DNA of 64,000 nt from Pseudomonadota bacterium (GTDB lineage Bacteria; Desulfobacterota; Desulfobulbia; Desulfobulbales; SURF-16). The DNA lies in NCBI GenBank assembly GCA_018897105.1, contig JAHILF010000005.1:1-64000 (forward strand), read 5' to 3'. Of this stretch, positions 13,398 to 62,018 are shown in pieces. The notes under the pieces are model-generated. The model saw nothing but the letters and a program-made list of their open reading frames with translations, was not told the origin of the DNA and searched no databases. The stretch's first letter is position 1. Every line of letters starts with the position of its first letter. Position numbers and translations under genes: made by a program.

Positions 13398-14150
13398 ATG
13401 AAAATACACTTTTTAGGGGTTGGCGAAGCCTGTGATGAACGCTGTCCCAATACATCGCTTCATGTGACAGCGGGAAAGGGGCAGCGGTTCCTGCTGGATT
13501 GCGGTTTTACCACCCCCCATCTCTATTTTGCCCTGAGCAGCGATCAGGACGAACTGGACGCGGTCTGGATTTCTCACTTTCATGGTGATCATTTTTTCGG
13601 TATGCCACTGTTGCTTCTCAGATTCTGGGAAATGGGCCGGAGAAAAAAGCTGGTTATCGCCGGGCAGCAGGGCACCCGGGAAAAAATTACGTCGGCCATG
13701 GAGCTTGCCTACCCGGGCTTTCTGCCGCGGCTCAGGTACCACCTTGATTTTGTGGAAATAGAACCGGGGCAGGTCCGGGAGATTGCCGGCACGATCTGGA
13801 GTACAGCGGAAAACATCCATTCCCAGCGTTGTCTGTCCTTATGTATCGCTGACAGCTCGCACCGGATTTTTTACAGCGGGGATGGCCGGCCGACCAGGGA
13901 GACGGAAACCCTGGCTGCAGGATGTGATTTGATCGTCCACGAAGCCTTCAGGCTGGAGGGGGAAGTGGAAAACCACGGCAATATCATGAACTGTCTGGAA
14001 TTTGCCGGCCGCGCCGGGGGGAAACATCTTGCCCTGGTACATGTGGAGCGAACCTGCAGAGAAACCGCCAAGATAAAAGTTGCCGGGCTGGAACGTAGCA
14101 GCGGGCCCCATGTTTTTCTGCCGGAACCGGGTGATATGTTTGTGTTATGA
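13398..14150 (+). CDS. MBL-fold hydrolase (RNase Z-like)
   Basis: HFHGDHFFG metal motif, YSGDGRPT, HEAF. Confidence 0.8.
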   Translation: MKIHFLGVGEACDERCPNTSLHVTAGKGQRFLLDCGFTTPHLYFALSSDQDELDAVWISHFHGDHFFGMPLLLLRFWEMGRRKKLVIAGQQGTREKITSAMELAYPGFLPRLRYHLDFVEIEPGQVREIAGTIWSTAENIHSQRCLSLCIADSSHRIFYSGDGRPTRETETLAAGCDLIVHEAFRLEGEVENHGNIMNCLEFAGRAGGKHLALVHVERTCRETAKIKVAGLERSSGPHVFLPEPGDMFVL

Positions 14151-16390: not shown

Positions 16391-16530
16391 TGTAGGGGCA
16401 CCCCTTGTGGGTGCCCTGGGAGCGGGCTACCCGTTGTGTGTCACTGTCCAGGCAGTTCGAGTTCGGGTACTGCATGATGGCCTATTCGGTACCCCCCTGG
16501 GATAGGGCACCCACAAGGGGTGCCCCTACA
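16391..16530. repeat. Inverted repeat with perfect 27-bp arms
   Basis: TGTAGGGGCACCCCTTGTGGGTGCCCT (16391-16417) vs AGGGCACCCACAAGGGGTGCCCCTACA (16504-16530). Confidence 0.85.
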
Positions 16531-16696: not shown

Positions 16697-19621
16697 ATGA
16701 GTACTGCCAGGCCCACGGTGTTCATCAGTTACAGCCACCTGGATGAGGAGTGGAAAAATCAGCTTCTCCCGCATCTCAAGGCCTTTGAGCAGCAGGGTGA
16801 TCTGCTGCTCTGGCATGACCGCAGGATCGACACCGGCGCGGACTGGTATCCTGAGATCCAACAGGCGGTGGAGGGGGCTCGGGTGGCGGTCTGCCTCATC
16901 ACCAAAAATTTCCTGGCCTCGGATTTTATTACCAAGGAGGAGGTGCCGGCCCTGCTCAAACGGCGGGAGGCAGAAGACCTGACCATCCTGCCCCTGCTGG
17001 TCTCACCCTGCACCTGGCAGCGTATTCGCTGGCTCAAGGGCATCCAGATGTTTCCCCCGGACAACAAGTGTCTTGCCGCCATAAAAGATGAAACAGAGTG
17101 TGAGCAACTGCTCGTGGATTTTGCGGTCAAGGTTGTGGATCGGGCATTGGCAACGGGCCAGAATCATGAGGTTTCCGTTTTTGAAAATCTGCTGGGTAAC
17201 GACGTTTCGGAAGGGGTGACGGACCGGGCGCTGCCGGGCCTCTTGGGTAAGGATGTTCACGCTTACCAGGATCTCTTGGTCAACATTGACTTTTCGGCAG
17301 AACCACCCAGCCAATCGAGTTTCCCTACCTCGCTCTTAGAATTATTGCTGCCTCCAGTGGAGATCTCCCGTCTGCCCGTGACCGGGGCTGAACTCTTTGG
17401 CCGGGAGGCGGAATTGGAATTGCTGGACAGCGTCTGGGAGCAGGGCAAAAGTAATGTCGTCTGTTTTGTGGCCTGGGGCGGGGTGGGCAAATCCACCCTG
17501 ATCAACAAATGGCTGACGGAGATGGCTGCGGACAGCTATCGCGGTGCTGCCAATGTCTTTGGCTGGTCTTTTTACAGCCAAGGAACCGGCGAACGGGTCA
17601 CCTCGGCGGACCGCTTCATTGCCGATGCCTTGGCCTGGTTCGGCGACCCGGATCCTATGACCGGCTCTCCCTGGGACAAGGGCCAGCGGCTGGCAGGCCT
17701 CATCAAGCAGCAGCGGACGCTGCTGGTGCTTGACGGCCTGGAGCCACTGCAGGCCGAGCATGATTTTGACAAGGGCCGCATCAAGGACCCCGGCCTGGCG
17801 GCCCTGGTTGCGGAACTGGCCAGGAATAATCCCGGCCTCTGCCTCATCACCAGCCGGGAAGAGGTGGCCGATCTCCGTCGTTTCCCGCAAACTGTTCAGG
17901 CACGAAACCTGGAGCAGATTTCCGCCGCAGCGGGCCGGGCTCTGCTGCGGGTTGGCGGGGTGCAGGGCAAGGACCTGGAGCTGGAGGAGGCTTCGAGAGA
18001 ATTCGGCAACCATGCCCTGGCCGTTAAGCTCCTGGCCGCCTATCTCCATGAGATCCCCGGCCACCATATCAAAGAGGCGGCCGACATCCCTGACCTGGAA
18101 ATCCCCGAGGAGCATGGTCGCCAACCCCGGCGGGTCATGGCTGCCCTGGTCGGTCTTTTAGGGGATTCACCGGAGGTCGAGTACCTGCGGATTCTTGGCC
18201 TCTTTGACCGCCCGGCGGACAAAGAGGCCCTGGCCGCGCTGCTCACCCCGCCTGCCATCCCGGATCTCACCGGTCGCATCATGGCCGTTAAGGAGGAAGA
18301 CCGCCATGAATGCCTCACTCGCCTACGGCGCCTGGGTCTCCTTGCCCCGGCAAGCAGCCAACGACCCGGTGATCTGGACTGCCACCCCCTGGTGCGGGAG
18401 CATTTTTGTGACCTTCTTCGGGAGCAATTCCCCGCAGCCTGGCAGCAGGGCAACCTACGACTCTATGAGTATTATAAAAGTGTTGCCAAGGAATACCCGG
18501 AAACCATCGAGGAGATGACCCCTCTCTTTTACGCCTGCGCCCATGGTTGCCGGGCTGGTCGCCAGCAGGAGGCGTTAGATAAGGTTTATTGGAAACGAAT
18601 TAGTAGAAAGCAGGAAGCTTACATTAATCATAAACTCGGCGCTTTAGGCTCTGATTTGGCTGCCCTTGCTAATTTTTTTGAGTTACTGTGGGAACGGCCC
18701 ATTGCGGGGCTAACCGAGAAGGGTTGGTTTTTTCTCTTAGGTTGTGCAGGTTTCAACCTTCGAGCCTTAGGCCAGCTGAGCGAGGCCTCTAGGCCAATGG
18801 AAGCTAGTCTGGATGCTGCTGTGGTAGGGAAAGACTGGGAAAACGCCGCCATAGCTGCCGCCAACCTTAGCGAACTCTGTCTTGCATTAGGCAAGGTGGA
18901 CCAGGCTATGAAGTATGGGGAGCGATCGGTGGAATTGGCCGACTGGAGCGGTGATGTTTTCCAGCGCTTGGCCAGACGCACCACCCATGCATCTTCCCTC
19001 CATCAGGCTGGCCAATTAGCTGTGGCAGAGGAATTATTCCACCAAGCTGAGGCCATACATCGGGAACGCCAACCCCTGTATCCCTTTCTCAACTCCATGC
19101 CAGGCTTCTTATACTGCGACCTACTTCTCAATCTACATAAGCCGACCGAGGCTTTGGAACGAGCTGAGAAAGCATTGGGGGAGAGCAAAACGCATGGAGT
19201 CCTTCGTGATATCGGCCTGGATTACCTCACCCTAGGTCGAGCTTGCTTTTGGCTGGGTGATTCAGATACTGCTGCCACTCACCTGGACCGTGCTATGGAC
19301 TTCCTGCGCAAGGCAAATGAACAGGAGTTGCTGGTTCGCGGCCTCCTAGCCCAGGCCGCCTTCTGGCGGGAGCAAGGGCAGTTCCATGCCGCCCGCCGGG
19401 ACTTGGATGAGGTTCTGGAGATCGTCGAGCGGTGCGGCATGCGGCTCTTCCTCACCGACTATCATCTGGAAAGCTGCCGCCTGCTGCTGGCTGAAAACGA
19501 CCTGCCCTCCGCCCGCGGTCACCTGGGCCTGGCCAAAAAACTGGTCGAGGAAACCGGCTACCACCGTCGTGACCGGGAGGTAGAGGAACTTGAAAAGCTG
19601 TTGGCCGATGTCAAACGATGA
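16697..19621 (+). CDS. TIR-STAND (NB-ARC-like)-TPR protein
   Basis: TIR: PTVFISYSHLDEEW...LITKNFLASDFITKEEVPALL; NB-ARC: GREAELELLD, AWGGVGKSTLINKWL (Walker A), TLLVLDGLEPL (Walker B), LCLITSREEV, GNHALAVKLL; C-terminal TPR-like helices. Start ATG 16697 after GGAAAGAG. Confidence 0.9.
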   Translation: MSTARPTVFISYSHLDEEWKNQLLPHLKAFEQQGDLLLWHDRRIDTGADWYPEIQQAVEGARVAVCLITKNFLASDFITKEEVPALLKRREAEDLTILPLLVSPCTWQRIRWLKGIQMFPPDNKCLAAIKDETECEQLLVDFAVKVVDRALATGQNHEVSVFENLLGNDVSEGVTDRALPGLLGKDVHAYQDLLVNIDFSAEPPSQSSFPTSLLELLLPPVEISRLPVTGAELFGREAELELLDSVWEQGKSNVVCFVAWGGVGKSTLINKWLTEMAADSYRGAANVFGWSFYSQGTGERVTSADRFIADALAWFGDPDPMTGSPWDKGQRLAGLIKQQRTLLVLDGLEPLQAEHDFDKGRIKDPGLAALVAELARNNPGLCLITSREEVADLRRFPQTVQARNLEQISAAAGRALLRVGGVQGKDLELEEASREFGNHALAVKLLAAYLHEIPGHHIKEAADIPDLEIPEEHGRQPRRVMAALVGLLGDSPEVEYLRILGLFDRPADKEALAALLTPPAIPDLTGRIMAVKEEDRHECLTRLRRLGLLAPASSQRPGDLDCHPLVREHFCDLLREQFPAAWQQGNLRLYEYYKSVAKEYPETIEEMTPLFYACAHGCRAGRQQEALDKVYWKRISRKQEAYINHKLGALGSDLAALANFFELLWERPIAGLTEKGWFFLLGCAGFNLRALGQLSEASRPMEASLDAAVVGKDWENAAIAAANLSELCLALGKVDQAMKYGERSVELADWSGDVFQRLARRTTHASSLHQAGQLAVAEELFHQAEAIHRERQPLYPFLNSMPGFLYCDLLLNLHKPTEALERAEKALGESKTHGVLRDIGLDYLTLGRACFWLGDSDTAATHLDRAMDFLRKANEQELLVRGLLAQAAFWREQGQFHAARRDLDEVLEIVERCGMRLFLTDYHLESCRLLLAENDLPSARGHLGLAKKLVEETGYHRRDREVEELEKLLADVKR

Positions 19622-19693
19622 AATCAGTCGTTATTTGACGAAGACAATACGAGAATATCCCATCATCACACCCCAAGTATGGAGGATCCGGAA

Positions 19694-22600
19694 ATGATCA
19701 AGCTCATCGTTGAAGGCAAACCGCATGACACCACAACAACAATTCCTGATGATCTGCGGGATCTTCTGGTCGGCGAGCGCTGCGAGCTGGTTGATTTTGA
19801 CCTCGATACCAGAAGTCGCGGTGTGGAAGAGGCTCCACCTCCAATTGAAATCAAGGCCAATGAAGACGACCTGTTGGAACTGGAGCTGGAGGGCGGTGCA
19901 CGGATCTGGATGAGCGTGGCTGAATACCGTGACCACATCGCCGCCCGCTCAATGCGCGGCCCGCAGGAAAAGGGGACGGTCCGGATCAATGCCAGCCTGC
20001 CGCAAATGACCGAGGAGCGCGGGATCTTGCAGTGGGTTGTCAAGAGGCTGCGTTTCCTGGGTTTTGATGTGGCCGAGGGTGCGGCCGAAAAACTGGCCGA
20101 ACGGATCGACACCAGAAAAGGCCTGGAGGGACTCTATAGCTGTTCCATCGACAAGGAGAAACTGGAGCTGTACGAGCACCCGGACTTTCCGAGCGGGGCT
20201 GATCCGTTCCTGGTCTTTATCCACGGCACCATGTCCAGCACGGAAGGCAGTTTCGGCGGATTGTGGAGCGAGCAGCCCCAGGTACGCCGGCGGCTGGCCG
20301 AACATTATGACGGCCGGACCTACGCCTTTGAGCATAAGACCTTTTCCGAAAGCCCCATTGTCAACGCCCTGGCCTTGGCCAAGGCCCTGCCTGACGGAGC
20401 GCGCCTTCACTTGGTGAGCCACTCCCGGGGGGGCATGATCGGCGAACTCCTGTGCCGAGGCGGCAGGTTATTGACAGATGGGGCCACAGCGCTCTTTGAT
20501 GATACTGACTTTAAACTGTTCAAGGCCGCTGACCAGGCCGTGCCGCGTAGCGCCCTGCGGGAACTGGAGGCGGTGCTGCGGCAGAAACGGTTTACCGTTG
20601 AACGGTTCGTGCGGGTGGCCTGCCCGGCCCGGGGCACAACCCTGGCGTCAAAGCGGCTTGACCGCTATCTCTCACTGTTGAACCTGGGGCTCTCATCCCT
20701 GGACAAGAGCGGTTGGGCAGGGGATATCTTGTGGCTGGTGGGGGCAATTATCAAAGAACGCACCGACCCCCGCGTCATGCCGGGTCTGGAGGCGATGATG
20801 CCCGAGTCCACCACTGTCAAACTGTTGAACCGGTCCGATGTGACGGTTACCGGAGCGCTGCGGGTCATTGCCGGAGATTACGACGGCGGCAGCATACTCG
20901 GCTGGGTGGCCAATTGGGCAACGGAAGGATTTTTCGGCTCCGAGAACGACACGGTGATCAACACCCCGTCCATGTATGGCGGCGCTCTCCGGCAGGAAAA
21001 CCTTGGCTGGTATTACTTTGCCCAGGGCAGTAATGTTTGGCATTTCAGCTATTTCAGAGAGCAGATCACAGCTGGACTTCTGGCCGACGGTCTGCTCCAG
21101 GATGGGACGGAGAGGGCCGGGTTCCTGCCCATCTCTCAGGCCCCGCATCGGCACGACCCCATCGGCCGGGGCGTTGCTCTGGATTTCGCCGTTGAAGGGT
21201 GGGGCGCTCCCCTGGGGTGCAAAGCACCGTCAGCCAACGGCAGAAAACCGCTTGTGCTTCTGGTGCCGGGGATCATGGGGAGTCACCTGCAGGTCGCGGA
21301 CAGGAGGGTCTGGCTGGATTTTCTGGCCATTGCCCGCGGCAAATTGAAAGAACTCGACATTGATGCGTCGGGGGTGACCACGGACGGCGCCATGAAGCTG
21401 TCCTATGGAGACTTTGGTTCCTTTCTCTCAGCAAAAAATGAGGTCATTTACTTCCCCTATGACTGGCGGCGGCCGCTACGGGAACAGGGTACGGAATTTG
21501 CCCGTTTCATGGGCCAGGTGCTCGACGCGGCAGCGGCAAACGGCAGGCCTGTGCGAATCGTGGCCCACTCCATGGGTGGACTCCTGGTGCGCATGGCAGC
21601 GGTTCTCTCCAATCCCGAGCGGAACGGCAACCGCTGGTGGGAACGTTTCAGCGCGGCCGGCACAACCAACCGACTGGTCATGGCCGGTACACCCAATAAA
21701 GGCTCGTGGACCGTGCCCTACGCTCTCACTGGACGTGATTCCATTGTCAAGGTGCTGGCCGCCGTGGATTTGAGTCATGATAGAGAGGAGATCCTGCGAT
21801 GTATTTCCGGCTTTACCGGATTTCTGGAGATGCTTCCAGACGACGGGGATGGCCACTGCTTCGACATTGATAGCTGGGAGAAGTGGCAGAAGGCGGACGG
21901 GGAGGAATGGCCCCTTCCCGATGCCGCTTTACTCGCTGCCTGCCGTGAAAACCGCAGGCTTCTTGACCGATTTGATTTTACCGGAGATGCCGGAATAATC
22001 CGTTACGTAGCCGGCTGTGAGGATGAAACTCCGTCCGGGGTCCGGATCGTTAACGCGAAGGGCAGGAATGAACTCATTTTTGACCGCTCCACTAAGGGGG
22101 ACGGCCGGGTCCTCTGGGCCACGGGTATCCCTAAAGGAATCAAGACATGGTACGTGAATGCCGCCCACGGCGATATTTTGAACCAGGAAGATGCCTTCAA
22201 TGGCCTGTCTGAGATCATCGAATACGGTGAGACCAGCCTGCTGCCCACTGAACCGCCGGCCCGGCGTGCGCTTGCGGCTGGGGAAGAGATTATGGTTGAC
22301 CGGGGGTTGCCGATGTATCCGGATCAGAACATGCTTATCCGTGCCGCTTTGGGGGGGAGGATTCTTCCACCCAGGGATCGGAGGACCGAGAAATTTCCTG
22401 CATTCAAGGTCGTGGTCTGCCATGGGGATTTACTGGCAGCTAGGAATCCGGTGGCTGTTGGGCATTATTTCGGTGATACCATCAACGGCAGCGAGGCGGT
22501 CCTGGACCGGCGGCTCGACGGGCTGCTCACCCGGCGTTATCAACTCGGAATTTATACCGGTGCCGAGGGGAGCGTCAATGTCTTTGTTCATACGGAAAAC

Positions 22601-25123
22601 AAGAAAAAATATACCGCCATCATTATCGGTTTGGGTCAGGTCGGCGAGCTGACCCAAGCCCGACTTGCCAACTGCTTTGCCAGGGCGATCCTGGAATTTG
22701 CCACCTCGCCTGCTGTAGATGCCATTGGGCCACAGGGGGTTGAACTTTCCATCAGCACCCTGCTCATCGGCAGCGGTTCAGGCTGGGGTCTCGGGGTTCA
22801 GGAAAGCGTTCGTGGCTTGGTTGACGGTGCCCGGCGCGCCAATATGAAACTTGCAGAATTGGACGGCGCACCGATTCGGCTGCGTGAGTTGGAACTCCTT
22901 GAGATTTTTGAGGATAGAGCGCTCATCGCCCTGCGCGCTGTTCGCAGCCTTGCCACCCTCGGGGGGCTCGCAGGGGTCGAGTACGAGGCCTCCCTGCGCT
23001 GTGGAACCGGCGGACTTCAGCGGGCGGTCTGCGAGGATGGCGGCGACTGGTGGCAGCGACTCAAGGTGGAGATGAATGACAAGGACGAGTTGAAGTTTAC
23101 CTCCCTGACCGGCCTGGCCCGCATCGAGGAAAGGGGGCAGCCTACCCAGCTGGCCCTGGTGGATCGTCTGGTGAAGAATGCCGTAACCAATTCGTCGATC
23201 TCAACCCGGGAGATGAACGCCATTTACAACCTTTTGTTCCCCAACTCATTGAAAATGAGTGCCCCGGACCAGGGCGATCTGCTGCTGATGCTCGACCCCA
23301 AAACCGCAGGTTATCCATGGGAGATGATGTATGTCGGAGAAGGGACGCAGAAGGAGCCCCTGGCCTTACGGGCCGGTTTGATCCGGCAGCTCAGTCTGCC
23401 TGAATTCCGGGAACGGCCGGTGTACAGCTCACGGCAACATGCCCTGGTCATTGCCGATCCAGACCTGAAGTCAAGCAAATTTCCCGAGCTTTCCGGCGCC
23501 CTGCAGGAAGGGAAAGCGGTGGTCAGGATTCTTGAGCAGAAGGGATTTCAGGTGGAAAGGCAGTTGCAAAGCGACCCGCTTTCGATTGCCGGCGCCCTTT
23601 TCGCCGGCGACTACCGTATTCTCCATCTGGCCGGACACGGGGTTTTTGAGTATCCTATTACCAGTAAAGGCAGGGATGGCACCAGCAGAACCAGCCTTGT
23701 CACCGGCATGGTTCTGGAATGGCCGACAAATGCAGAAACCGAAAAGGATGATGCCCGGCAGGACCCGGTCCTGTTGACCGCCGTGGAAGTTCGTCAGATG
23801 ATCGCCGTGCCGGAGTTGGTCTTTATCAACTGCTGTTTTCTGGGCCAGATGGAGGGCCTTGACAAGTGGTTTGCCAAACGGCATCTCTTTGCCGCCAGCC
23901 TTGCTGCTAAATTTATCAGCATGGGGGTGCGAGCCGTGGTGGCCGCTGGCTGGGCAGTGAACGACAGCGCAGCCGAAATATTCGCCACTTCCTTTTACAA
24001 TGCCATGTTCGATGGTCACACCTTTGGCGATGCGGTTCGCGCCGCCCGTTGCAAGGCCCATGAGCAGGTGGGGAGTTGCAATACCTGGGCCGCATACCAG
24101 TGTTATGGCGATCCTGGTTTTCGTTTCCGGGAGAACCATGCGGCACGTCCGAGAAAGTTTTTCCTTGCCCCCCGAGAGGTGGTGTGCGAGTTGCGCGCCT
24201 TGGGCGAGAAGAAAAGGGATGCGCGGGGCAACCGGCTGAGCTCCGCTGACCTGACACGAGATCTGGAGCAGCTTGAACGTCTTATTCCACATGAATGGAT
24301 GATACAAAATGGCGAGATCCGGGCCGCCCTAGCCGCTGTTTATGCCGAATTGGGAGATAACGACCGGGCCATCGAACACTACGAGGCCGCTGAGATATGC
24401 CGGGACGGCGGCTGTACGGTTCGAGATCTGAACCAGTTGTCCAACCTGCGGGTCCGGCGGGCGCAAGATTATCCGCCTGAGCAGGCGGATAAGGAAATAC
24501 TTAGGGAGATAGAAATTCTCACCAGAAGGGCGGGCGAATTGGGTGAGACCCCCGATATCTGCACCATAACCGGCAGTGCGGTAAAGCGGCTGTTGCTGAA
24601 GGTGGCCGACAAGAAACCGACAAAGAAGAAAGAACTGGCGGACCTCATCCGTTTGATGGAGGAATGGTATGAGAAGGCAGTGAAAAGTGACGGTGAATTG
24701 GATCCCTATGCCGCCATGAACTCAATCTGTGCCGCCATCATCGAGGAGTGCTGGGCGGTATCGCCATCGCCTAACCAGGAAAAATTGGCAAAGATCCGCA
24801 ACCTCCTTGATCAAGCGACTATGGCCGGGCAGCGCCTGGAAGAAAAGGACCCGCGTTTCTGGAACGGGGTTCATGCCATCGACGCCGATCTCTACCGTTT
24901 TATTCTGACCCGGATGAAGGGAGGATTGGAGATCGATGGTGTTCCGGATACAAAGGAATTAAATGAGCGGTATAACAATCTGGCGGACAAATACGGTACC
25001 CCCCGGAAGATGGGTTCGGTTGCGGATCAGATCAAATTTGTCGCTCGTTTCCTGCCGGAGAAGGAGATGAAAGAGGTTAAGCACGACCTTGAGAAATTGG
25101 CAGAAAATTTGAGAAAGGGATAG
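19694..25123 (+). CDS. Giant alpha/beta-hydrolase (two elbows) - CHAT protease protein
   Basis: FVFIHGTMSS, HLVSHSRGGM, VLLVPGIMGSHL, RIVAHSMGGLL; CHAT region with ILHLAGHGVFEY (His) and ELVFINCCFLGQ (Cys); start ATG 19694 after GGAGG (ORF extends to 19679). Confidence 0.88.
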   Translation: MIKLIVEGKPHDTTTTIPDDLRDLLVGERCELVDFDLDTRSRGVEEAPPPIEIKANEDDLLELELEGGARIWMSVAEYRDHIAARSMRGPQEKGTVRINASLPQMTEERGILQWVVKRLRFLGFDVAEGAAEKLAERIDTRKGLEGLYSCSIDKEKLELYEHPDFPSGADPFLVFIHGTMSSTEGSFGGLWSEQPQVRRRLAEHYDGRTYAFEHKTFSESPIVNALALAKALPDGARLHLVSHSRGGMIGELLCRGGRLLTDGATALFDDTDFKLFKAADQAVPRSALRELEAVLRQKRFTVERFVRVACPARGTTLASKRLDRYLSLLNLGLSSLDKSGWAGDILWLVGAIIKERTDPRVMPGLEAMMPESTTVKLLNRSDVTVTGALRVIAGDYDGGSILGWVANWATEGFFGSENDTVINTPSMYGGALRQENLGWYYFAQGSNVWHFSYFREQITAGLLADGLLQDGTERAGFLPISQAPHRHDPIGRGVALDFAVEGWGAPLGCKAPSANGRKPLVLLVPGIMGSHLQVADRRVWLDFLAIARGKLKELDIDASGVTTDGAMKLSYGDFGSFLSAKNEVIYFPYDWRRPLREQGTEFARFMGQVLDAAAANGRPVRIVAHSMGGLLVRMAAVLSNPERNGNRWWERFSAAGTTNRLVMAGTPNKGSWTVPYALTGRDSIVKVLAAVDLSHDREEILRCISGFTGFLEMLPDDGDGHCFDIDSWEKWQKADGEEWPLPDAALLAACRENRRLLDRFDFTGDAGIIRYVAGCEDETPSGVRIVNAKGRNELIFDRSTKGDGRVLWATGIPKGIKTWYVNAAHGDILNQEDAFNGLSEIIEYGETSLLPTEPPARRALAAGEEIMVDRGLPMYPDQNMLIRAALGGRILPPRDRRTEKFPAFKVVVCHGDLLAARNPVAVGHYFGDTINGSEAVLDRRLDGLLTRRYQLGIYTGAEGSVNVFVHTENKKKYTAIIIGLGQVGELTQARLANCFARAILEFATSPAVDAIGPQGVELSISTLLIGSGSGWGLGVQESVRGLVDGARRANMKLAELDGAPIRLRELELLEIFEDRALIALRAVRSLATLGGLAGVEYEASLRCGTGGLQRAVCEDGGDWWQRLKVEMNDKDELKFTSLTGLARIEERGQPTQLALVDRLVKNAVTNSSISTREMNAIYNLLFPNSLKMSAPDQGDLLLMLDPKTAGYPWEMMYVGEGTQKEPLALRAGLIRQLSLPEFRERPVYSSRQHALVIADPDLKSSKFPELSGALQEGKAVVRILEQKGFQVERQLQSDPLSIAGALFAGDYRILHLAGHGVFEYPITSKGRDGTSRTSLVTGMVLEWPTNAETEKDDARQDPVLLTAVEVRQMIAVPELVFINCCFLGQMEGLDKWFAKRHLFAASLAAKFISMGVRAVVAAGWAVNDSAAEIFATSFYNAMFDGHTFGDAVRAARCKAHEQVGSCNTWAAYQCYGDPGFRFRENHAARPRKFFLAPREVVCELRALGEKKRDARGNRLSSADLTRDLEQLERLIPHEWMIQNGEIRAALAAVYAELGDNDRAIEHYEAAEICRDGGCTVRDLNQLSNLRVRRAQDYPPEQADKEILREIEILTRRAGELGETPDICTITGSAVKRLLLKVADKKPTKKKELADLIRLMEEWYEKAVKSDGELDPYAAMNSICAAIIEECWAVSPSPNQEKLAKIRNLLDQATMAGQRLEEKDPRFWNGVHAIDADLYRFILTRMKGGLEIDGVPDTKELNERYNNLADKYGTPRKMGSVADQIKFVARFLPEKEMKEVKHDLEKLAENLRKG

Positions 25124-25222
25124 AAAGGAGGTCTGTTTTTTTATACTCTTTATCAGGCCAAGTCATTGTCTGGTAAAAAGATTGCCGCGAAATCCGGATT
25201 TTTTGAGCAAAAAGGAGAGACC

Positions 25223-25540
25223 ATGAGCACGCCTGTGAAAAAGATCGATACCCCTTTCGGGGAGTATGCGCCGCGGGTTGCCAGCCACGACGAACTGGAG
25301 CGCGCGGCAGCGGTCATGGGGGACGCGGTGGAGGCAATCGCCCGGGTCAACCATGACAGGTGGGCGGCGGAGAGGATTTTCCAGGGGTGGCGCTACGGGG
25401 AAGAGCGGGATGATGCCCGGAAGCTGCATCCGGATCTCGTCCCGTATGAGCTCCTCTCCGAGGCGGAAAAACGAATCGACGTGGAGGGCGCCAAAGCGAT
25501 CATTGCCGAACTGATCAGGCTTGGAATTCTTCGGCAATGA
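25223..25540 (+). CDS. RyR domain-containing small protein
   Basis: IARVNHDRWAAERIFQGWRYGEERDDARKLHPDLVPYELLSEAEKRIDVEGAKAIIAELIRLG matches the RyR repeat pattern (W..R...GW.YG..RDD..K.HP.LVPY..L...EK..D); SD AAAGGAGA upstream of ATG 25223. Confidence 0.88.
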   Translation: MSTPVKKIDTPFGEYAPRVASHDELERAAAVMGDAVEAIARVNHDRWAAERIFQGWRYGEERDDARKLHPDLVPYELLSEAEKRIDVEGAKAIIAELIRLGILRQ

Positions 25541-25561
25541 TTGCTTGAACAGAATAGACAT

Positions 25562-25597
25562 AAAAAGGGAACTGACTGTCCGGTCAGTTCCCTTTTT
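25562..25597. terminator. Bidirectional intrinsic terminator closing the TIR/CHAT/RyR module
   Basis: AAAAAGGGAACTGACtgtccGGTCAGTTCCCTTTTT hairpin with A/T tracts between convergent genes. Confidence 0.85.
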
Positions 25598-25638
25598 ATG
25601 TTATGGCCAGGTTGGCGGAAATCAGGGAATCTCAGATT

Positions 25639-46540: not shown

Positions 46541-48682
46541 GTGGATCAAATTTTGGCAACCGAATCCCTGCTCCCCTGGCTTGAGCCGGAATCCTCCAAG
46601 GTTTACCTGAAGGTTTCTGCGCCGGGTAGGGATTCATCCGTGCCAGCAGTGCCGTTTGCTTTCCCACTTCTTGACGCCTCTTCGCCCCTTGCCCGCCTTG
46701 TTCCCGCCTCTTTCACTGACGGTTCACCACAGACGATCAAGGATGTCTTTCTGCTGGTGCAGAAGGACCAGTATACCTTTTCGGAAACTCAGGTGCCCTT
46801 CAGCAATCGGGATATCGATGCGATGTGGCGGCAAACCGGGGAAGTCGCGGCTGTAGATGATGGAGCCCCCATTGCCACCGGACTGCTTTGCCCGGCTGGC
46901 GGCAGCGCCGGTATGCCCCTGTGGAGGTCACTTTTTTATTGCGTGCTCCGGCAACTTTTTTTTCATCCCCCCTGTCCCCGCTGCGGTAAATTGCTGGAAC
47001 TTTGCGCTGCAGATGAGGTGCTGACTGCTGCCGGCCTGCCGGCCTATTCCTCGAGTCTGCAGCGTTTCCTTTTCTGCCCCGCCTGCCAGGGTGGAGGCGG
47101 GCAGACGGAGTTTTTCGCCTATGCCGCCCCGGATACAGCCGCTCCTTTGGTCAAAAACCGACTCGCCCTGATCGATGAATTTGCCCAACTTGTCGGCAAC
47201 AATAAAGTGGGGACGGATTTTCCCTGCCAAGACTGCCCCCAGAGCGGGGAGTGTTTCGGGCCGGGCAAACAGGCGGCAACAAGGATTATCCCCTTGGCCT
47301 TTTATCCGTTTAGAATGATCGTCACCCCTGCCCGGCAACTCCATGCCGCCGATTTTCTCTCCCTTATTTCCGGGGCGTCAGGGGCGGAACTTGCGGGCCA
47401 GCTTGAGGTAGCGGGTCTGCCGGGCCGGGCTGCCTGTGTCAAGGCCTTGGGCGGCCGGGAAGGGGGCAGGATATCCCTGTTTTTTCAAGACGCACGACGT
47501 TTTCCGGAGGTGCTCTATCTGAAACTGGCCCTGCTGGCACAGATCAGCAGAGCCGCTTTTCCCGCCTTGTCCCATCTGCAGCATGCGGATCTACGGCTTT
47601 CTATCGATCAGTTCTGGGTTGACTTTGCCGACTATGAGGGGCCATTGCCCTATTTCTGGAATTTCCGGGCTATGCCGCTGGCCATCGGTTTGACTCCGCC
47701 ACCTCCGTCCGCTTTCCTGAAGGTCCCGGAAGCCCTTGGCATCCACACCCTTTCCCTGCTGTGGTTCAATGTCCTGGTGGCAAATAGCAGCCAGACACCC
47801 CGGGATATTACGCAATCTCTCGCTGATTTTTATGAAAAGCATCAGGCAGAGGCGGAACCGGATTTTCCCGCCTCTGCCGGTTTTAGCCCCGGCAACATTT
47901 TCTGGCGGCCTGTTGCTCAACAGCTTCCTGCAGAATGGCTTGCCCTCTGGCAGCAGGCTTTGGGGCTGGGCTGGTCTCTGCTGCGCCAGTCGTGCCAGCC
48001 GGCAGCTGATTTTTCGGCAGCAACCTTCACTGCCCAGTTGGCTCGCCTGGCCGAGGAGGTGAAGCAGAGCCTGTTTGCCGTTGAGGCTGTGCCGGTTATG
48101 GCAATGCCTGCGGAAGATAGCGAGGGGGCCATCTGCCGGATCCTGCTCGACATCCGGCAGAAGTGGATGGCGGAGCTGCCAAGCGAACCCGCAGTGCAGG
48201 GAGTTGCCGCAGATGCGGCTGGTCAGGTTGAGGGGCAGGTCGTGGAGCTGCCGGAGGAAGAAGATCTGGAAAAAACAGTAATGATGACTGCGGACCAGCT
48301 TGCGATACTCATGCGGAAAGAAGCCCAGCCTGCCAGTGCCCCGCAGACCCATGTCGTTGATGAGGCACCGCCGACCATCAGCCCTGTGTCACCAGTAGGC
48401 GGGTCCCCAGCAGGCAAGTCCGCGGAGAAAACGGTGCATCCCGTCACGGATGAGCAAGCCGGTCTTGAAAAGACAGTGATCATGAGTGCCGATGCAATTG
48501 CTGCACTGCTTGCCGGCCGCAGCGGTAAAGCCACCCCCCCCGCCCCGGCACCAAGCGAGAAGAAGCCGGCACCGGCGAAACAGCAGTTGCCTGATGCCGC
48601 GGAGGCCGGGCTTTCTGAAACAGTGATGATCAATCCGAAACAACTTGAAGCGCTGAGGAAAATGAAAAAGAATGACAAATAG
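46541..48682 (+). CDS. T6SS-cluster accessory protein with Cys-rich knuckles and repeated TV(M/I) motifs
   Basis: CPRCGKLLELC...FCPACQGGG, CQDCPQSGEC; C-term LEKTVMMTADQLAILM, LEKTVIMSADAIAALL, LSETVMINPKQLEALRK. Confidence 0.7.
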   Translation: MDQILATESLLPWLEPESSKVYLKVSAPGRDSSVPAVPFAFPLLDASSPLARLVPASFTDGSPQTIKDVFLLVQKDQYTFSETQVPFSNRDIDAMWRQTGEVAAVDDGAPIATGLLCPAGGSAGMPLWRSLFYCVLRQLFFHPPCPRCGKLLELCAADEVLTAAGLPAYSSSLQRFLFCPACQGGGGQTEFFAYAAPDTAAPLVKNRLALIDEFAQLVGNNKVGTDFPCQDCPQSGECFGPGKQAATRIIPLAFYPFRMIVTPARQLHAADFLSLISGASGAELAGQLEVAGLPGRAACVKALGGREGGRISLFFQDARRFPEVLYLKLALLAQISRAAFPALSHLQHADLRLSIDQFWVDFADYEGPLPYFWNFRAMPLAIGLTPPPPSAFLKVPEALGIHTLSLLWFNVLVANSSQTPRDITQSLADFYEKHQAEAEPDFPASAGFSPGNIFWRPVAQQLPAEWLALWQQALGLGWSLLRQSCQPAADFSAATFTAQLARLAEEVKQSLFAVEAVPVMAMPAEDSEGAICRILLDIRQKWMAELPSEPAVQGVAADAAGQVEGQVVELPEEEDLEKTVMMTADQLAILMRKEAQPASAPQTHVVDEAPPTISPVSPVGGSPAGKSAEKTVHPVTDEQAGLEKTVIMSADAIAALLAGRSGKATPPAPAPSEKKPAPAKQQLPDAAEAGLSETVMINPKQLEALRKMKKNDK

Positions 48683-49421
48683 CGCTCAGCTCAAGCAAAT
48701 AACCAAAGAAATCAGGCAGATTTATCAGGCGGACAGGGTCAATGCCGCAGCCCTGGTTGAGGAGCATCTCATTCATGCCTTGGCCGATTACAGCGCTTCA
48801 GAGCGGCTGGCCTTTCTGGAAAGATGCCTCGCCGGTTTCGGCCATATTCCCGCGGTGCCATCACCTCCTCCGGCCTCCCCGGCCGAGGTGAGTTCCGAGG
48901 CATTCAACAAGCTGTTGACAATGCTTCTTGGCAAAGAGATATTGGAGAGAGAGCTGTCAACCGAGGAGATGATCAAACACCTGGCCGCCGCCTTGAATAC
49001 CGTTTTTGATTCGGTCAATAAGCTGATAGGCGGCATCAATGCCACCCTGATGGGCAGCGCCTCGGGCGAGGAAACCATTCGGGTTGTGATCAGTTCCAGT
49101 ATTGATGAAAAGAAAGGGATCGCTTCCCTGGAGAAATATCTTGATCAGATCGGTCAGTTTTTCGCCATAGCCCTGCGGGCATATAAGGAGGCCGCCCAGA
49201 CCAAGATCGGTGAAATTTTAAATGAGCTGGATCCTGTACGTATTGCTGAAGAGAATGAAAACGGTCTGAAATTCGGGCCGTTGCGCAAGGCGCATCAGTT
49301 TGACTGCTACCAGGATAAGTATAAGACCCTGCTGAACTGGCAGCGATCCGGACTGCTCTTGGAAGCGTTTATGAAGGAATTTGAAAAAAATTGCCAAAAG
49401 CTTTATCTGAAGAGGGAGTAA
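48672..49421 (+). CDS. T6SS-associated protein, possibly TagH C-terminal-like without FHA domain
   Basis: Position directly before tssJ; GLKFGPLRKAHQFDCYQDKYKTLLNWQRSGLLLEAFMKEFEKNCQKLY. Confidence 0.45.
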   Translation: MTNSAQLKQITKEIRQIYQADRVNAAALVEEHLIHALADYSASERLAFLERCLAGFGHIPAVPSPPPASPAEVSSEAFNKLLTMLLGKEILERELSTEEMIKHLAAALNTVFDSVNKLIGGINATLMGSASGEETIRVVISSSIDEKKGIASLEKYLDQIGQFFAIALRAYKEAAQTKIGEILNELDPVRIAEENENGLKFGPLRKAHQFDCYQDKYKTLLNWQRSGLLLEAFMKEFEKNCQKLYLKRE

Positions 49422-49976
49422 ATGAAAAATTATTGGAAGCTATCCTGGGGAATTTTGTGTCTTTTTTTTCTTGCATCCTGCGCCAAGGTGCCGCCGCCAC
49501 CCCCGGTACCGCCTGCGCCGCCGCAGTATTCCTACAGCAAGGATGCCGTCAAGATTCAGATCAATTCAGATTCCCAGCTGAATCTCTATCAGTCCAGCCC
49601 CCATACCCTGCTGCTCTGCGTTTACCAGCTCAGCGATCCCAACGCCTTCTACCGGCTGACCGGAGACATCGACGGCATCTACAAGCTGCTCTCCTGTAGC
49701 CAGTTCGACCCCAGCGTCACCCATTCCAAACGCTTCATTGTCCAGCCTGATCAGAAAGTCACCTATACCCTTGATCGGGCTGAGGGCACCAAGTATGTGG
49801 CCATTGGTGCGGGTTACTACAATGTCCGCAAGGAGGATGTCACGCGTCTTTTTGAAATTCCCGTCGTGGAGAAAAAATCGGAAACATCCGATACACTCCG
49901 CGTGCTGGAACCGGATGTCCTTACTGTCGATATTGACTTGGGTCCAACCAAGATCAGCAGTATTACCGGTCAATAA
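49422..49976 (+). CDS. tssJ: T6SS outer-membrane lipoprotein TssJ
   Basis: Lipobox LASC; INSDSQLNLYQSSPHTLLLCVYQLSDPNAFYRL. Confidence 0.9.
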   Translation: MKNYWKLSWGILCLFFLASCAKVPPPPPVPPAPPQYSYSKDAVKIQINSDSQLNLYQSSPHTLLLCVYQLSDPNAFYRLTGDIDGIYKLLSCSQFDPSVTHSKRFIVQPDQKVTYTLDRAEGTKYVAIGAGYYNVRKEDVTRLFEIPVVEKKSETSDTLRVLEPDVLTVDIDLGPTKISSITGQ

Positions 49977-50076
49977 ACAGCCGGCCTGACTGGCGCAAGG
50001 CCTGCCTGCCGGGCCTTGTCGATGTCCAGGCTGAAGCTGCTCCGGGGTTACAATATCCGATACATGGAAGGGGATT

Positions 50077-51471
50077 ATGGTGGATATCAACAGATCGATT
50101 TTTTGGCACCAGGGGCTTTTTCTCCAGCCCCATCATTTTCAGCAGCATGACCTGTATATCCAGGATCTGCACCAGCCGTTCCGGAAATTTCTCAATCCCT
50201 ACTTCTGGGGTGTGGCGGCCATGGAGGCCTCCCGCGGGGCGCTGGACAATTTTTCCTTTGACATCCTGAAAGGGGAGTTTGTCTTTCAGGATGGCACCTA
50301 TGTGGTCTTTCCGGGCAATGCCGTGCTGGCAAAGCGATCTTTCAAAAACGCCTGGGTTGAGGAGGACAAGCCCTTCACCATTTATCTCGGGTTGAAAAAA
50401 TTGGATGAGGCCGGCAGTAATGTGACGGAGCTGGCAAGTCTTGACAAGATCGGCGAGGTATCGACCCGCTATGTGACCCTGGCTGAACCGGAACAGATCA
50501 ATGACCTGTATGAAAACGGCCCGCCCGGCGAGGTGAAAAAACTGCATCTGGTGCTGAAACTTTTCTGGGACAGTGAAAAGGAAATGGTGGGCGATTATCT
50601 GCTTCTCCCCCTGGCCCAGCTGGAAAGGGACGGCGAGGTGATCCGCTTTGTGCCGGGCTTTGCCCCACCTGCGGTCACCCTGCAGAGTTCCGAGGTGCTT
50701 ATCCAGACCGTCAAAAACATCCGGGACCAGATCGGCAGCCGCAGCCGGCAGCTCGATGAGTACAAGGCCCAGCGCGGCATCCATACCAGTGATTTCGGCG
50801 CCCGGGACATGGTCTTCATGCTGGCCCTGCGCAGCCTGAACAGGTATGTGCCGCTGCTGTTTCATCTCACCGAGCCGGCCTTTACCCATCCCTGGCCCGT
50901 CTTCGGACTGCTGCGCCAGCTGATCGGCGAGCTTTCCTCCTTTTCCAGCACCGTGAATGTGCTGGGAGAACTGGACGACGGCCAGGCCCTGCTCGGCGCT
51001 TATAACCATAATGACCTGGGCAAATGCTTCCTGGCCGCCCAGTCCCTGATTTCCCGTCTGCTGGATGAGATCACCGCCGGCCCCGAATACATCATCAGGC
51101 TGGTCTTTGACGGAACCTATTACATCGGTGATCTGCTGCCGGCTCATTTCACCGAAGGCAACCGCTATTACCTGGTGGTGGAGACCGAGGAGGAACCTCA
51201 ACAGGTGCTCGACGCCCTGCAGGGCATCGCCAAACTCGGCTCGCGAGAGTCACTGCCGCTGCTCATTGCCCGGGCGCTGCCCGGCGTTGCTCTGGAACAT
51301 CTTGCCATCCCGCCCCAGGAGTTGCCCCGGCGGGCGCATTGCCTCTATTTCCAGATCAATCATCATGGGGATCAATGGGGCAATGTGGTGAAAGGCAACA
51401 ATTTGGCATTATACTGGGACAATGCGCCGGATGATTTCAAGGCGGAACTGATGGTCGTAGGGAGGTCGTGA
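50077..51471 (+). CDS. tssK: T6SS baseplate protein TssK
   Basis: IFWHQGLFLQPHHFQQHDLY, HLAIPPQELPRRAHCLYFQI. Confidence 0.95.
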   Translation: MVDINRSIFWHQGLFLQPHHFQQHDLYIQDLHQPFRKFLNPYFWGVAAMEASRGALDNFSFDILKGEFVFQDGTYVVFPGNAVLAKRSFKNAWVEEDKPFTIYLGLKKLDEAGSNVTELASLDKIGEVSTRYVTLAEPEQINDLYENGPPGEVKKLHLVLKLFWDSEKEMVGDYLLLPLAQLERDGEVIRFVPGFAPPAVTLQSSEVLIQTVKNIRDQIGSRSRQLDEYKAQRGIHTSDFGARDMVFMLALRSLNRYVPLLFHLTEPAFTHPWPVFGLLRQLIGELSSFSSTVNVLGELDDGQALLGAYNHNDLGKCFLAAQSLISRLLDEITAGPEYIIRLVFDGTYYIGDLLPAHFTEGNRYYLVVETEEEPQQVLDALQGIAKLGSRESLPLLIARALPGVALEHLAIPPQELPRRAHCLYFQINHHGDQWGNVVKGNNLALYWDNAPDDFKAELMVVGRS

Positions 51472-51473
51472 CA

Positions 51474-52151
51474 ATGCGTTTACGGGATTGCTTTGCCGAA
51501 CTGGTGGCATATGTGGCCTATTTTTTAAAGAGCGACATCCAGAACAGTCTCTCCTACAGCCAGGTGCAGACCGATGTGCAGCGGCTGCTGTCGGAAAGTG
51601 ACACCATGGTGCGGCAGGGGCAGATTTCCAGCGAGGAATACGATGAGGCGCGCTTTGCCATCTGTGCCTGGATCGATGAGTCGATTCTTAATTCACCCTG
51701 GCAGGGCCGGACGCAATGGCAAAAGGAACTCCTGCAGCGCAGGTATTATCAGACCACAGATGCCGGTGAAGAGTTCTTTGAACGGCTGAACCGGCTTGAC
51801 CAGCAGCAGCGTGGCGCCAGGGAAATTTACTATCTCTGTCTGGCCATGGGTTTCAAGGGCAGGTATCACCAGCAAGGTGACGATCTGCTGCTCGACCAGC
51901 TCAAGACATCCAATCTCAAATACCTGCTGGGCAGCTCGGTTGGCCTGCCTGCCCTGGACCGGACCGAGCTTTTTCCCGAGGCCTACCCGGTGGAAAGCGC
52001 CGGTCCAGCCTCCGCAGCCAAACAGAGCATTTTTACCCCGGCGGCCATCGCGGTGTTTGTGTCTCCTGTGGTGCTGTTCGGAGTACTATTTTTCATTTAT
52101 ACCTTTATCTTGAATAATATCGGTGAGAATTTCCTGAAAGCGGTGTCCTGA
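51474..52151 (+). CDS. tssL: T6SS TssL/DotU
   Basis: DEARFAICAWIDESILNSPWQGRTQWQKELLQRRYYQTTDAGEEFFERL, C-terminal TM. Confidence 0.93.
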   Translation: MRLRDCFAELVAYVAYFLKSDIQNSLSYSQVQTDVQRLLSESDTMVRQGQISSEEYDEARFAICAWIDESILNSPWQGRTQWQKELLQRRYYQTTDAGEEFFERLNRLDQQQRGAREIYYLCLAMGFKGRYHQQGDDLLLDQLKTSNLKYLLGSSVGLPALDRTELFPEAYPVESAGPASAAKQSIFTPAAIAVFVSPVVLFGVLFFIYTFILNNIGENFLKAVS

Positions 52152-55100: not shown

Positions 55101-55636
55101 ATTACGCAGTGCGGGCTCTCGATGGCCAGGTTGCCTTTGATCCGACTTTCTTTACCTTTCTGACCAAGGGGGTGAGTGCCAAGAGAACGGTCCAGGCCAG
55201 TTATGATGTGTCCATCAAGGGCCTGCCCACCGATGTTAATCAGGAGGCCATGATAAAACCCCATGCAACCCATGTTGAGCTGCAATGCGCCAGCGGCAGC
55301 GTCAAGTTGAATAACTTCCAGTTCCCGGAAACGAAAACCTTCCAGTGGTCGCCGGAAACCTGCGGGGATGTTGTCTTTGAAATTGAGGTGAGCAATCTGG
55401 TGCTCACCAAGATTTACAAAGGCAGCCGGGCTTTTGTCAGCTTTCTCCAGGACTTCAAAACCGGTCAGATGTCCTTTTATCCCGGGGACTTCCCCGAACA
55501 GAAAGAGGAGCTGCAGCGGCTGGGCATAAAATATATCAAGGTCAGCTATCAGTTTGCCGGCAACGGTCCTATTCTCCAGCTGCAGCAGGCATCCCCCGGC
55601 CAGGTGCCGTCGCGAGTGGTGCAATGCTGGGATTAG
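52151..55636 (+). CDS. tssM: T6SS TssM/IcmF
   Basis: N-term TMs, Walker A GESGSGKTTAI, CDWWFFEQAIILDTAGRY, C-term WSPETCGDVVFEIEV. Confidence 0.95.
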   Translation: MKQFWRILIKSLLVITGLALVILLVAGLVLILDWPWWTGFFFLLLLFGAAIGVILVRKILRRRGEQKFVDQIISQDDLKLKAMAAQERDEAQLLQARWKEAIDTLKSSHLRKFGNPLYVLPWYLVIGESGSGKTTAIKSARLSSPFAAAAQVSGISGTRNCDWWFFEQAIILDTAGRYAIPVHESRDKDEWHSFLGLLAKFRKKEPLNGLIVTVSASKLLEASQEELEREGLQIRSRIDEIMLAIGSKFPVYVMVTKCDLIKGMTHFCDKLPEKVVNQAMGVINPQHMKVTPAFWTNAVDTVSERVGNLLLRVLHDTKSSKVDPALILFPSEFERLRTGLHNFMAKAFQENPYQETPILRGLFFTSGRQEGTPYSHFLQKLGLLGEKEVLPGTNKGLFLHDFFARILPMDRGIFAPTTRSLEWQRLSRNLGLTSWVALIIALCGLMSFSFVKNLQTMREVPKEFLQQSGPVMQGDLLMDVVSLDQYQQAILRIEQRNKNWWMPRFGLTHSIEVERQLKAKFSQQFRKTFLMPLDKRMADRMAGFNLATPDQLLNRHISHLVRRINLLKKRLQTNDYQALSDMPQVPFLILLSQEQKEMIPEIRKKMGSIYLHYLYWNQDDSQVNLELTELQNWLKFCLASKGGRLDWLIPWANEQENLAQVTLADFWGGSRNVQDAVRVAPAFSRKGKAMIDAFLQEIEAALPEPGPSLIARQKLEFADRYRQSYLEEWRSFAAGFSQGTKRLAGYEEWLPMAQKITSLTGPYLTLLDKMADECTTVAGEGKSVPAWVALTTSYRNLRAQAEVLARSEGGGGLLAKAGEKSMNLIDKVGQKLDSGRPENLENQLQAAKALRDFQNSLQDVMPTLSPRKAAYDTAAAVFKDEKNPIATGRQAIARMKTYMTSGKKDEDVFWALINGSINFLWDFERAEAACYLQDRWEKDVLVEVQGISDQQKVMQLLLDEDGYAMKFVKGPAAPFISRNPSKGYYAVRALDGQVAFDPTFFTFLTKGVSAKRTVQASYDVSIKGLPTDVNQEAMIKPHATHVELQCASGSVKLNNFQFPETKTFQWSPETCGDVVFEIEVSNLVLTKIYKGSRAFVSFLQDFKTGQMSFYPGDFPEQKEELQRLGIKYIKVSYQFAGNGPILQLQQASPGQVPSRVVQCWD

Positions 55637-56364: not shown

Positions 56365-56484
56365 TCTTTTTTTATTTGAAATGCATGATTTGCAGGTGAT
56401 ACAAGGTAATAAGCTGCTTTGGTTCCTCCTGCAGGAATGAATGTACATATCAGGTATGTACTTTCTGCCGCAAAACCTTAATAG

Positions 56485-58690: not shown

Positions 58691-58789
58691 TGGCCCATCA
58701 GGGCGAGTTGCAACAGCGAAGGAACAATGCGATGCAATAGGTTTTGTACAGACCTTGTATCATGTGGAAAATGAAAAAGGAGGAGTAAC

Positions 58790-59317: not shown

Positions 59318-59331
59318 AGGAGGTAGCAAAG

Positions 59332-60828: not shown

Positions 60829-60867
60829 AGGAACTGTTTAGCTGATGAGCTGTTGAGCTGCTGAACG

Positions 60868-60903
60868 TCATTCCGGGCAAGCGAAGCGCGACCCGGAATC
60901 CAT
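60868..60903. repeat. Imperfect palindromic repeat between tssC and hcp
   Basis: CGTCATTCCGGGCAAGCGAAGCGCGACCCGGAATCCATG; second copy of the 3138 repeat. Confidence 0.6.
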
Positions 60904-60984
60904 GAATAAGCTGTTAAGTTGATAAGCCATGAGCCATAAACCATGAGCTATTAGACAGAAAAAACTTAAAGGAGGAGAAACACT

Positions 60985-61473: not shown

Positions 61474-61491
61474 GCCGCTAAGACCGTGCTG

Positions 61492-61962: not shown

Positions 61963-62018
61963 CCGGGCAGGGATGGGTTTACCGAGCTGTATTACTTCAG
62001 GATTTTTTTGAGACGGTC

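What the first reader, a model, noticed from the sequence alone, without database searches (positions are those of the whole stretch)
16697..19621. NLR-like architecture in a bacterium: TIR + NB-ARC-like STAND + TPR
The translation shows FISYSHLDEEW (TIR box 1), NFLASDFITKEEVPALL (S-x-F-x-x-x-E region where TIR NADases carry the catalytic Glu), AWGGVGKSTLINKWL, TLLVLDGLEPL, LCLITSREEV, GNHALAVKLL and a TPR-like C-terminus. This is the plant TNL order with TPRs replacing LRRs. STAND proteins are established phage-protein sensors (Avs family).
Basis: partly seen in the sequence, partly recalled or inferred. Interest (0 to 1): 0.7.

Follow-up and report, generated by a model that had tools for sequence, protein, structure and literature searches.

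The report
TIR-NLR operon with RyR signal gene
A bacterial cousin of plant immune receptors sits in a three-gene operon with a giant protease/lipase-like effector and a small RyR-domain protein of the family recently shown to bind or destroy TIR-made signals, and a sister species has swapped the sensor half and the effector while keeping the signal-making and RyR parts.

Summary
The architecture alone is not new; the STAND-TPR core occurs in about 4% of sampled Pseudomonadota genomes. The context was missed. The gene opens a compact operon: gene 2 (1809 aa) has two alpha/beta-hydrolases, a macro fold, a CHAT caspase-like protease and a TPR-S domain folded like ASK1's central region; gene 3 is a 105-aa RyR-domain protein with the four key residues of phage RyDEP, which cleaves cADPR immune signals. 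At the same site one congener keeps TIR/NB-ARC and RyR but has a divergent TPR half and other effectors; another keeps only an RyR remnant; a third is empty. Best reading: an abortive-infection-type system in which an NLR sensor switches on TIR, an ADP-ribose-type signal drives a swappable effector, and RyR reads or limits that signal. Signal, phage sensing and killing are inferred, not shown. New variant of a known kind.

The parts
16391..16530 (.). perfect 27-nt inverted repeat (arms 16391-16417 and 16504-16530), REP/MITE-like, in the upstream region of gene 1
   Evidence: the repeat finder; region 95.5% identical in G002
16697..19621 (+). gene 1: TIR-NB-ARC-TPR NLR-like receptor, 974 aa
   Evidence: ORF; Pfam; model
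16718..17050 (+). TIR domain of gene 1 (catalytic-Glu candidates E81/E82 at 16937-16942)
17363..18406 (+). NB-ARC/AP-ATPase STAND module with winged helix (GGVGKS P-loop at about 17477-17494; Walker B LLVLDGLE; TSRE; HPLVREH)
   Evidence: alignments; fold matches
18707..19618 (+). TPR sensor region of gene 1; 63.5% aa identity to G002 against 90% for TIR and NB-ARC, dS 1.30
19694..25123 (+). gene 2: effector-type protein, 1809 aa from ATG 19694 (GGAGG upstream)
   Evidence: ORF (listed from 19679); sequence; Pfam
20210..20806 (+). first alpha/beta-hydrolase of gene 2 (DUF7379/Abhydrolase_6; invariant SHSRGG, candidate nucleophile S244)
21434..21649 (+). second alpha/beta-hydrolase (LCAT-like; AHSMGG, candidate nucleophile S626, replaced by G in the paralog L078)
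22394..22975 (+). macro-fold (Peptidase_M17_N-like) domain of gene 2
   Evidence: Pfam; macroH2A1.1 Z 15.9 (rmsd 2.8, 166 residues), leucine aminopeptidase Z 16.2
23210..24112 (+). CHAT caspase-like protease (H1315 in LAGHG; C1380/C1381 in FINCC)
   Evidence: Pfam E 2.1e-29; separase Z 22.1, Csx29 TPR-CHAT Z 21.6
24167..25120 (+). TPR-S domain, fold of the ASK1 central regulatory region
   Evidence: Pfam TPR-S 28.5 bits against cut-off 27.6; 5ulm Z 19.9 over 265 residues
25223..25540 (+). gene 3: RyR-domain protein, 105 aa; H44, W47, H69, D86 at the spacing of RyDEP H75/W78/H100/D117
   Evidence: Pfam RyR 68 bits; paper PMC13232231
25558..25601 (.). 19-bp perfect hairpin with T run, likely bidirectional terminator closing the operon
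18545..25222 (.). block exchanged relative to congener G002: TPR half of gene 1 plus the whole effector gene

Best explanation
The locus is a three-gene conflict (abortive-infection-type) operon. Inferred mechanism: the TPR region of gene 1 senses an invader product; its NB-ARC ATPase then oligomerises and brings TIR domains together; the TIR domains turn NAD+ into an ADP-ribose-type signal. Gene 2 reads that signal through its TPR-S and/or macro domain and releases its CHAT protease and lipase-like hydrolases against the cell. Gene 3, an RyR-domain protein, binds or hydrolyses the signal, as a brake on basal signalling or as a second reader. Sensor and effector are exchangeable; the TIR/NB-ARC signal generator and the RyR gene are the constant core. 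Shown: domain content, folds of gene 1 and of gene 2 residues 860-1809, gene order, presence of candidate catalytic residues, and the block swap. Inferred: enzymatic activities, signal identity, sensing and cell death.
For: Gene 1 domains and fold. Same strand, gaps of 72 and 99 nt, terminator after gene 3. TPR-S of gene 2 has the ASK1 central-region fold, Z 19.9, with macro and CHAT folds beside it. In G002 at the same site DNA identity is about 90-95% over most of TIR/NB-ARC (with a dip at 16945-17544) and over the RyR gene and flanks, falls to 60-70% at about 18545, vanishes over the effector, and returns at 25223; dS is 0.35 in TIR and NB-ARC but 1.30 in TPR. G002's replacement effectors again include CHAT. 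Gene 2 orthologs/paralogs elsewhere sit beside TIR genes: G407 (55% identity, TIR genes downstream and a related DUF4365-STAND upstream), G000:C52, and 6 of 31 public loci. RyR genes lie within 3 kb of TIR in 5 of 14 other genomes of the phylum (0.06 expected on uniform placement) and within 5 kb in 4 of 20 Bacteroidota loci. RyR is fused to TPR-S in L064 next to a TIR gene. Phage RyR proteins cleave or sequester 2'/3'cADPR through H, W, H, D residues present in gene 3 (PMC13232231). A TIR-made signal is known to activate a caspase-like protease in type IV Thoeris (reported in PMC12847820).
Against: Most homologs of gene 1 in Pseudomonadota are solo genes without gene 2 or RyR. In the 31 public gene-2 loci no STAND of this family or RyR was found; the usual partner is a metacaspase (20/31), sometimes a TIR-like/TPR-S gene. 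RyR-TIR adjacency was not reproduced in Pseudomonadota (0/7 within 5 kb, 1/7 within 10 kb), and defence-island clustering inflates the phylum-level figure. In G002 the RyR has Q in place of H69 and a high dN/dS of 0.56, so its function may be relaxed there. TPR-S in the G002 CHAT protein is below cut-off. No enzymatic or phage data.
Confidence: 0.52

Rival explanations
1. Gene 1 is a self-sufficient Avs/bNACHT-like defence protein whose TIR depletes NAD+ directly; genes 2 and 3 are independent conflict genes that share the site by chance.
For: Most homologs are solo TIR-STAND-TPR genes, some in tandem pairs; Foldseek places Avs3 among the matches (E 4.1e-6); gene 2 relatives usually partner metacaspases.
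Against: Compact operon with a terminator after gene 3; RyR kept with TIR/NB-ARC while the middle is exchanged for another CHAT-bearing effector set; gene 2 relatives in G407 and G000:C52 also adjoin TIR genes.
Confidence: 0.27
2. A narrower version of the best explanation: the RyR gene is an immunity/quenching protein only; it removes basal TIR product and protects the cell from gene 1 or gene 2, like a host-held copy of a phage sponge.
For: RyDEP-family chemistry (PMC13232231); four residues conserved; 189 phage records carry homologs of gene 3.
Against: In other bacteria RyR is fused C-terminally to TrkA_N channel-like proteins next to TIR genes, which fits a reader more than an eraser; only 1 of 9 characterised phage family members (RyDEP and eight homologs) was catalytic; H69 is Q in G002.
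Confidence: 0.3
3. The protein is a regulator or developmental cell-death switch (MalT/AfsR-like STAND) rather than an antiphage sensor.
For: TPR part matches MalT and AfsR models.
Against: No DNA-binding domain found; enzymatic N-terminal domains swap among homologs (TIR, DUF4365); patchy presence at one site in the genus and fast sensor turnover.
Confidence: 0.1
4. The TIR domain is a catalytically dead scaffold that recruits gene 2 by contact.
For: No TIR activity was tested; active-site geometry was not measured in the model.
Against: Glu present at the alphaC position and conserved in homologs; TIR under strong constraint, dN/dS 0.15.
Confidence: 0.08

Closest known systems
STAND protein with TPR sensor, PDB 6mfv
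   Same: STAND ATPase followed by a TPR sensor; Z 22.8 over 529 residues, Foldseek E 1.9e-14
   Different: the match covers model residues 225-873, i.e. not the TIR domain; no operon comparison made
Plant TIR-NLRs (RPP1, ROQ1)
   Same: TIR then NB-ARC then repeats; RPP1 tetramer Foldseek E 9.3e-10
   Different: TPR instead of LRR; dedicated CHAT/TPR-S effector and RyR gene in operon
Avs / bNACHT antiviral STANDs
   Same: tripartite effector-STAND-sensor plan
   Different: no PADLOC Avs family match; NTPase is NB-ARC-like; separate effector gene
Type IV Thoeris (TIR to N7-cADPR to caspase-like protease)
   Same: TIR generator plus caspase-superfamily protease in one operon
   Different: TIR here is fused to an NLR; protease sits in a 1809-aa protein with hydrolases, macro and TPR-S
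Type II Thoeris (His-ADPR, TM-macro)
   Same: macro-fold domain downstream of a TIR
   Different: no transmembrane segment predicted in gene 2
TPR-S / ASK signalosome-type NAD-derived-signal systems (Burroughs and Aravind 2020, from memory)
   Same: TPR-S domain with ASK1 central-region fold encoded next to a TIR
   Different: signal generator is an NLR; RyR gene added
Phage RyDEP (RyR R12 domain) anti-Thoeris proteins
   Same: RyR domain with H, W, H, D set at identical spacing
   Different: host-encoded, inside a TIR operon; activity unknown
Craspase Csx29 TPR-CHAT and SAVED-CHAT
   Same: CHAT protease fold (Csx29 Z 21.6; SAVED-CHAT Foldseek E 4e-6)
   Different: other activation modules and context

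Membership tests
NB-ARC/AP-ATPase STAND (NLR-like) | P-loop, Walker B, TTR/TSR motif, winged helix, C-terminal repeats | tested here: met
   motifs conserved in alignments A1, A4, A5; NRC1/NRC2 NB-ARC and Apaf-1 Z about 20; Pfam NB-ARC itself is sub-threshold
NB-ARC/AP-ATPase STAND (NLR-like) | nucleotide-dependent oligomerisation | not testable with these tools
   needs protein
TIR NADase | TIR domain with catalytic Glu in alphaC | tested here: met
   Pfam TIR_2 E 1.5e-14; E81/E82 in helix 76-93
TIR NADase | cleavage of NAD(P) | not testable with these tools
   needs assay
Avs (antiviral STAND) | match to a PADLOC Avs family | tested here: not met
   no Avs family at E <= 0.1
Thoeris | ThsB-type TIR | tested here: met
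   PADLOC ThsB1 E 4.5e-21 over residues 6-150 only
Thoeris | ThsA effector (SIR2-SLOG, TM-macro or the type IV caspase-like protein) beside a stand-alone TIR | tested here: not met
   TIR is fused to a STAND; gene 2 matches no ThsA model and has no TM; type IV effector models were not on hand
TPR-S systems | TPR-S domain | tested here: met
   28.5 bits, cut-off 27.6; ASK1 central region Z 19.9
TPR-S systems | binds an NAD-derived signal | not testable with these tools
   prediction of Burroughs and Aravind 2020 (from memory; paper not held)
CHAT protease | CHAT fold with His/Cys dyad | tested here: met
   Pfam E 2.1e-29; H1315 and C1380/C1381 conserved; separase Z 22.1
RyDEP/RyR R12 | RyR domain with ligand/catalytic H, W, H, D | tested here: met
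   Pfam 68 bits; spacing +3, +25, +42 identical
RyDEP/RyR R12 | cADPR cleavage or sequestration | not testable with these tools
   in the phage family RyDEP is catalytic; of eight further homologs six bind and none cleaves

The most novel reading that the evidence does not exclude
Bacterial TIR-NLR operons carry their own RyR-domain protein as reader or eraser of the TIR-made cyclic ADP-ribose signal, and evolve by exchanging sensor half and effector as one block around a fixed TIR/NB-ARC + RyR core; phage RyDEPs would be captured pieces of such host systems.
Probability: 0.3. Interest if true: 0.78.

Novelty: new variant of a known kind. Interest (0 to 1): 0.56.

Why it matters
RyR domains were only recently shown, in phages, to degrade or sequester TIR-made cADPR signals. 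Finding an RyR gene inside a host TIR operon, retained while sensor and effector are exchanged, makes testable whether bacteria use RyR to read or switch off their own TIR signal, and bears on the old link between cADPR and animal ryanodine receptors. It also offers a bacterial TIR-NLR with a separate, swappable executioner, parallel to plant TNL-to-helper signalling.

Tried and rejected
Viral contigs: no relative of gene 1. Plasmids: only TIR-region matches. PADLOC and NCBIfam: no named defence family for gene 2 or the RyR gene. Prophage/plasmid origin: the site lies between a Bax1-I gene and a 310-aa gene conserved in the genus, no tRNA in the window. Gene 2 as an obligate STAND partner: rejected, 31 public loci show metacaspase, TIR-like/TPR-S or TIR partners and no STAND of this family. 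RyR-TIR linkage as universal: rejected, a large AAA-RyR family and the Pseudomonadota loci are not TIR-linked. The VIA list did not test the TIR part of the gene 1 model; no separate TIR fold was made (both prediction jobs used). The Burroughs and Aravind 2020 paper is not held, so its scope is from memory.

Full report
Observation. Pfam finds TIR_2 at residues 8-118 (E 1.5e-14), TPR at 683-972, and a STAND NTPase between them that scores just below the curated cut-offs of NACHT, AAA_16 and NB-ARC. Motifs conserved in homologs (GGVGKS/T, LLVLDGLEPLQ, LCLITSRE, GHALA, HPLVREH) follow the AP-ATPase/NB-ARC plan. An AlphaFold2 model built on 14 window/locus sequences (pLDDT 81.5) has STAND-TPR protein 6mfv as best Foldseek hit (E 1.9e-14; Z 22.8 over 529 residues), then plant NB-ARC domains (NRC2 Z 20.7, NRC1 Z 20.5) and Apaf-1 (Z 20.1). 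The catalytic-Glu candidate is E81 or E82: E81 aligns with the plant TIR Glu, E82 is the column kept in same-subtype homologs; both lie in helix 76-93. Active-site geometry was not measured.

How common. A 77%-identical ortholog is in one congener. A profile of the STAND-TPR core hits 16 of 398 Pseudomonadota genomes; most of the well-conserved hits are solo TIR-STAND-TPR genes, two loci with tandem copies, others with different N-termini. In G407 the same core carries DUF4365 instead of TIR (E 1.3e-36). The architecture is therefore a known kind, in line with published surveys of AP-ATPase conflict proteins (PMC7159879, PMC8195603).

Operon. Two genes follow on the same strand. Gene 2 (start 19694 by its GGAGG) begins 72 nt after gene 1 and encodes 1809 aa: two alpha/beta-hydrolases (DUF7379/Abhydrolase_6; LCAT-like), a Peptidase_M17_N match, CHAT and TPR-S. 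The model of residues 860-1809 (pLDDT 80) shows a macro fold (macroH2A1.1 Z 15.9, rmsd 2.8 over 166 residues; leucine aminopeptidase Z 16.2), a CHAT protease (separase Z 22.1; Csx29 TPR-CHAT Z 21.6) and a TPR-S with the fold of the ASK1 central regulatory region (5ulm Z 19.9 over 265 residues). Gene 3 (25223-25540, 105 aa, AAGGAG upstream) is an RyR domain (68 bits). A 19-bp hairpin terminator follows at 25558-25601.

RyR. [quoted passage not shown] Gene 3 has H44, W47, H69, D86 at exactly the same spacing. In G002 H69 is Q. 189 phage records encode homologs.

Same site in the genus. G005 has no insert: the Bax1-I gene and the 310-aa gene are about 190 bp apart. G004 has only a 3' remnant of about 160 bp of the RyR gene. 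G002 has gene 1 and RyR but, between them, a calcineurin-like phosphoesterase gene and a 655-aa CHAT gene in place of gene 2. DNA identity between window and G002 is about 90-98% through the left flank and the start of gene 1, dips at the TIR/NB-ARC linker (16945-17544), is 82-93% over NB-ARC, drops to mostly 60-70% from about 18545, disappears over the effector, and is 81-95% again from the RyR start. dS is 0.35 in TIR and in NB-ARC, 1.30 in TPR, 0.16 in RyR, 0.10-0.26 in neighbours. The simplest reading is exchange of one block holding the sensor half and the effector, with TIR/NB-ARC and RyR left in place. This rests on two genomes, so one event at least.

Neighbourhood evidence elsewhere. 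Gene 2 relatives: G407 has a 55%-identical copy with TIR genes just downstream and the DUF4365-STAND 3 kb upstream; the window's own genome has a paralog at C52 flanked by a TIR gene and a metacaspase. Among 31 public loci, 20 have a metacaspase, 7 a gene with a TIR-like N-terminus, TPR-S and SLOG-like part, 6 a TIR gene; none has this STAND or RyR. RyR: in the window's phylum 5 of 14 other genomes have TIR within 3 kb (0.06 expected on uniform placement; defence clustering not corrected); Bacteroidota 4 of 20 loci within 5 kb, all four outside the large AAA-RyR family; Pseudomonadota 0 of 7 within 5 kb. In L064 RyR is fused to TPR-S beside a TIR gene, and in L172, L187 and L058 RyR ends a TrkA_N protein next to a TIR gene. 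RyR is thus often, not always, tied to TIR.

Mechanism. Most likely: TPR senses an invader product, NB-ARC oligomerises, TIR converts NAD+ to an ADP-ribose-type signal, gene 2 reads it by TPR-S and/or macro and unleashes CHAT and hydrolases, RyR reads or limits the signal. A TIR-made signal activating a caspase-like protease is established for type IV Thoeris (as reported in PMC12847820). All biochemical steps here are inference. The chief rival is a solo NADase gene 1 with unrelated neighbours.

Verdict.

Noticed in passing
L187:8045-13274; L190 about 9.6-10.1 kb; L172:9706-12658; L058:2290-4101: TrkA_N (RCK)-RyR proteins, several with an N-terminal hydrophobic segment, directly beside TIR genes; look like TIR-signal-gated channels (L190 seen only by profile).
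   Followed up: partly
window 46541-63824: Type VI secretion gene cluster by sequence appearance (TssK, TssL, TssM, TssB, TssC, Hcp, TssE, TssF-like); not searched against families.
   Followed up: no
window 16391-16530: Perfect 27-nt inverted repeat, REP/MITE-like, upstream of gene 1 and shared with G002.
   Followed up: no
L078 (G000:C52:14000-33000): Paralog of gene 2 with neighbouring metacaspase, TIR-like/MPFG gene and TIR gene in the same genome.
   Followed up: partly
L079:5013-8831 (G000:C164): TIR and CHAT domains in one 1272-aa protein.
   Followed up: no
window 13398-14150: Metallo-beta-lactamase fold protein with a weak, sub-cut-off match to anti-Pycsar Apyc1 (25.3 bits, cut-off 50); probably a housekeeping hydrolase.
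   Followed up: no
L068, L069, L173 and similar: Large AAA-RyR(-RyR) family of about 850-930 aa, common in Bacteroidota and mostly not linked to TIR.
   Followed up: no
gene 1 residues 126-222 (window 17072-17362): Linker between TIR and NB-ARC is largely disordered in the model and among the fastest-evolving parts (56.7% aa identity to G002, dN/dS 0.55).
   Followed up: no
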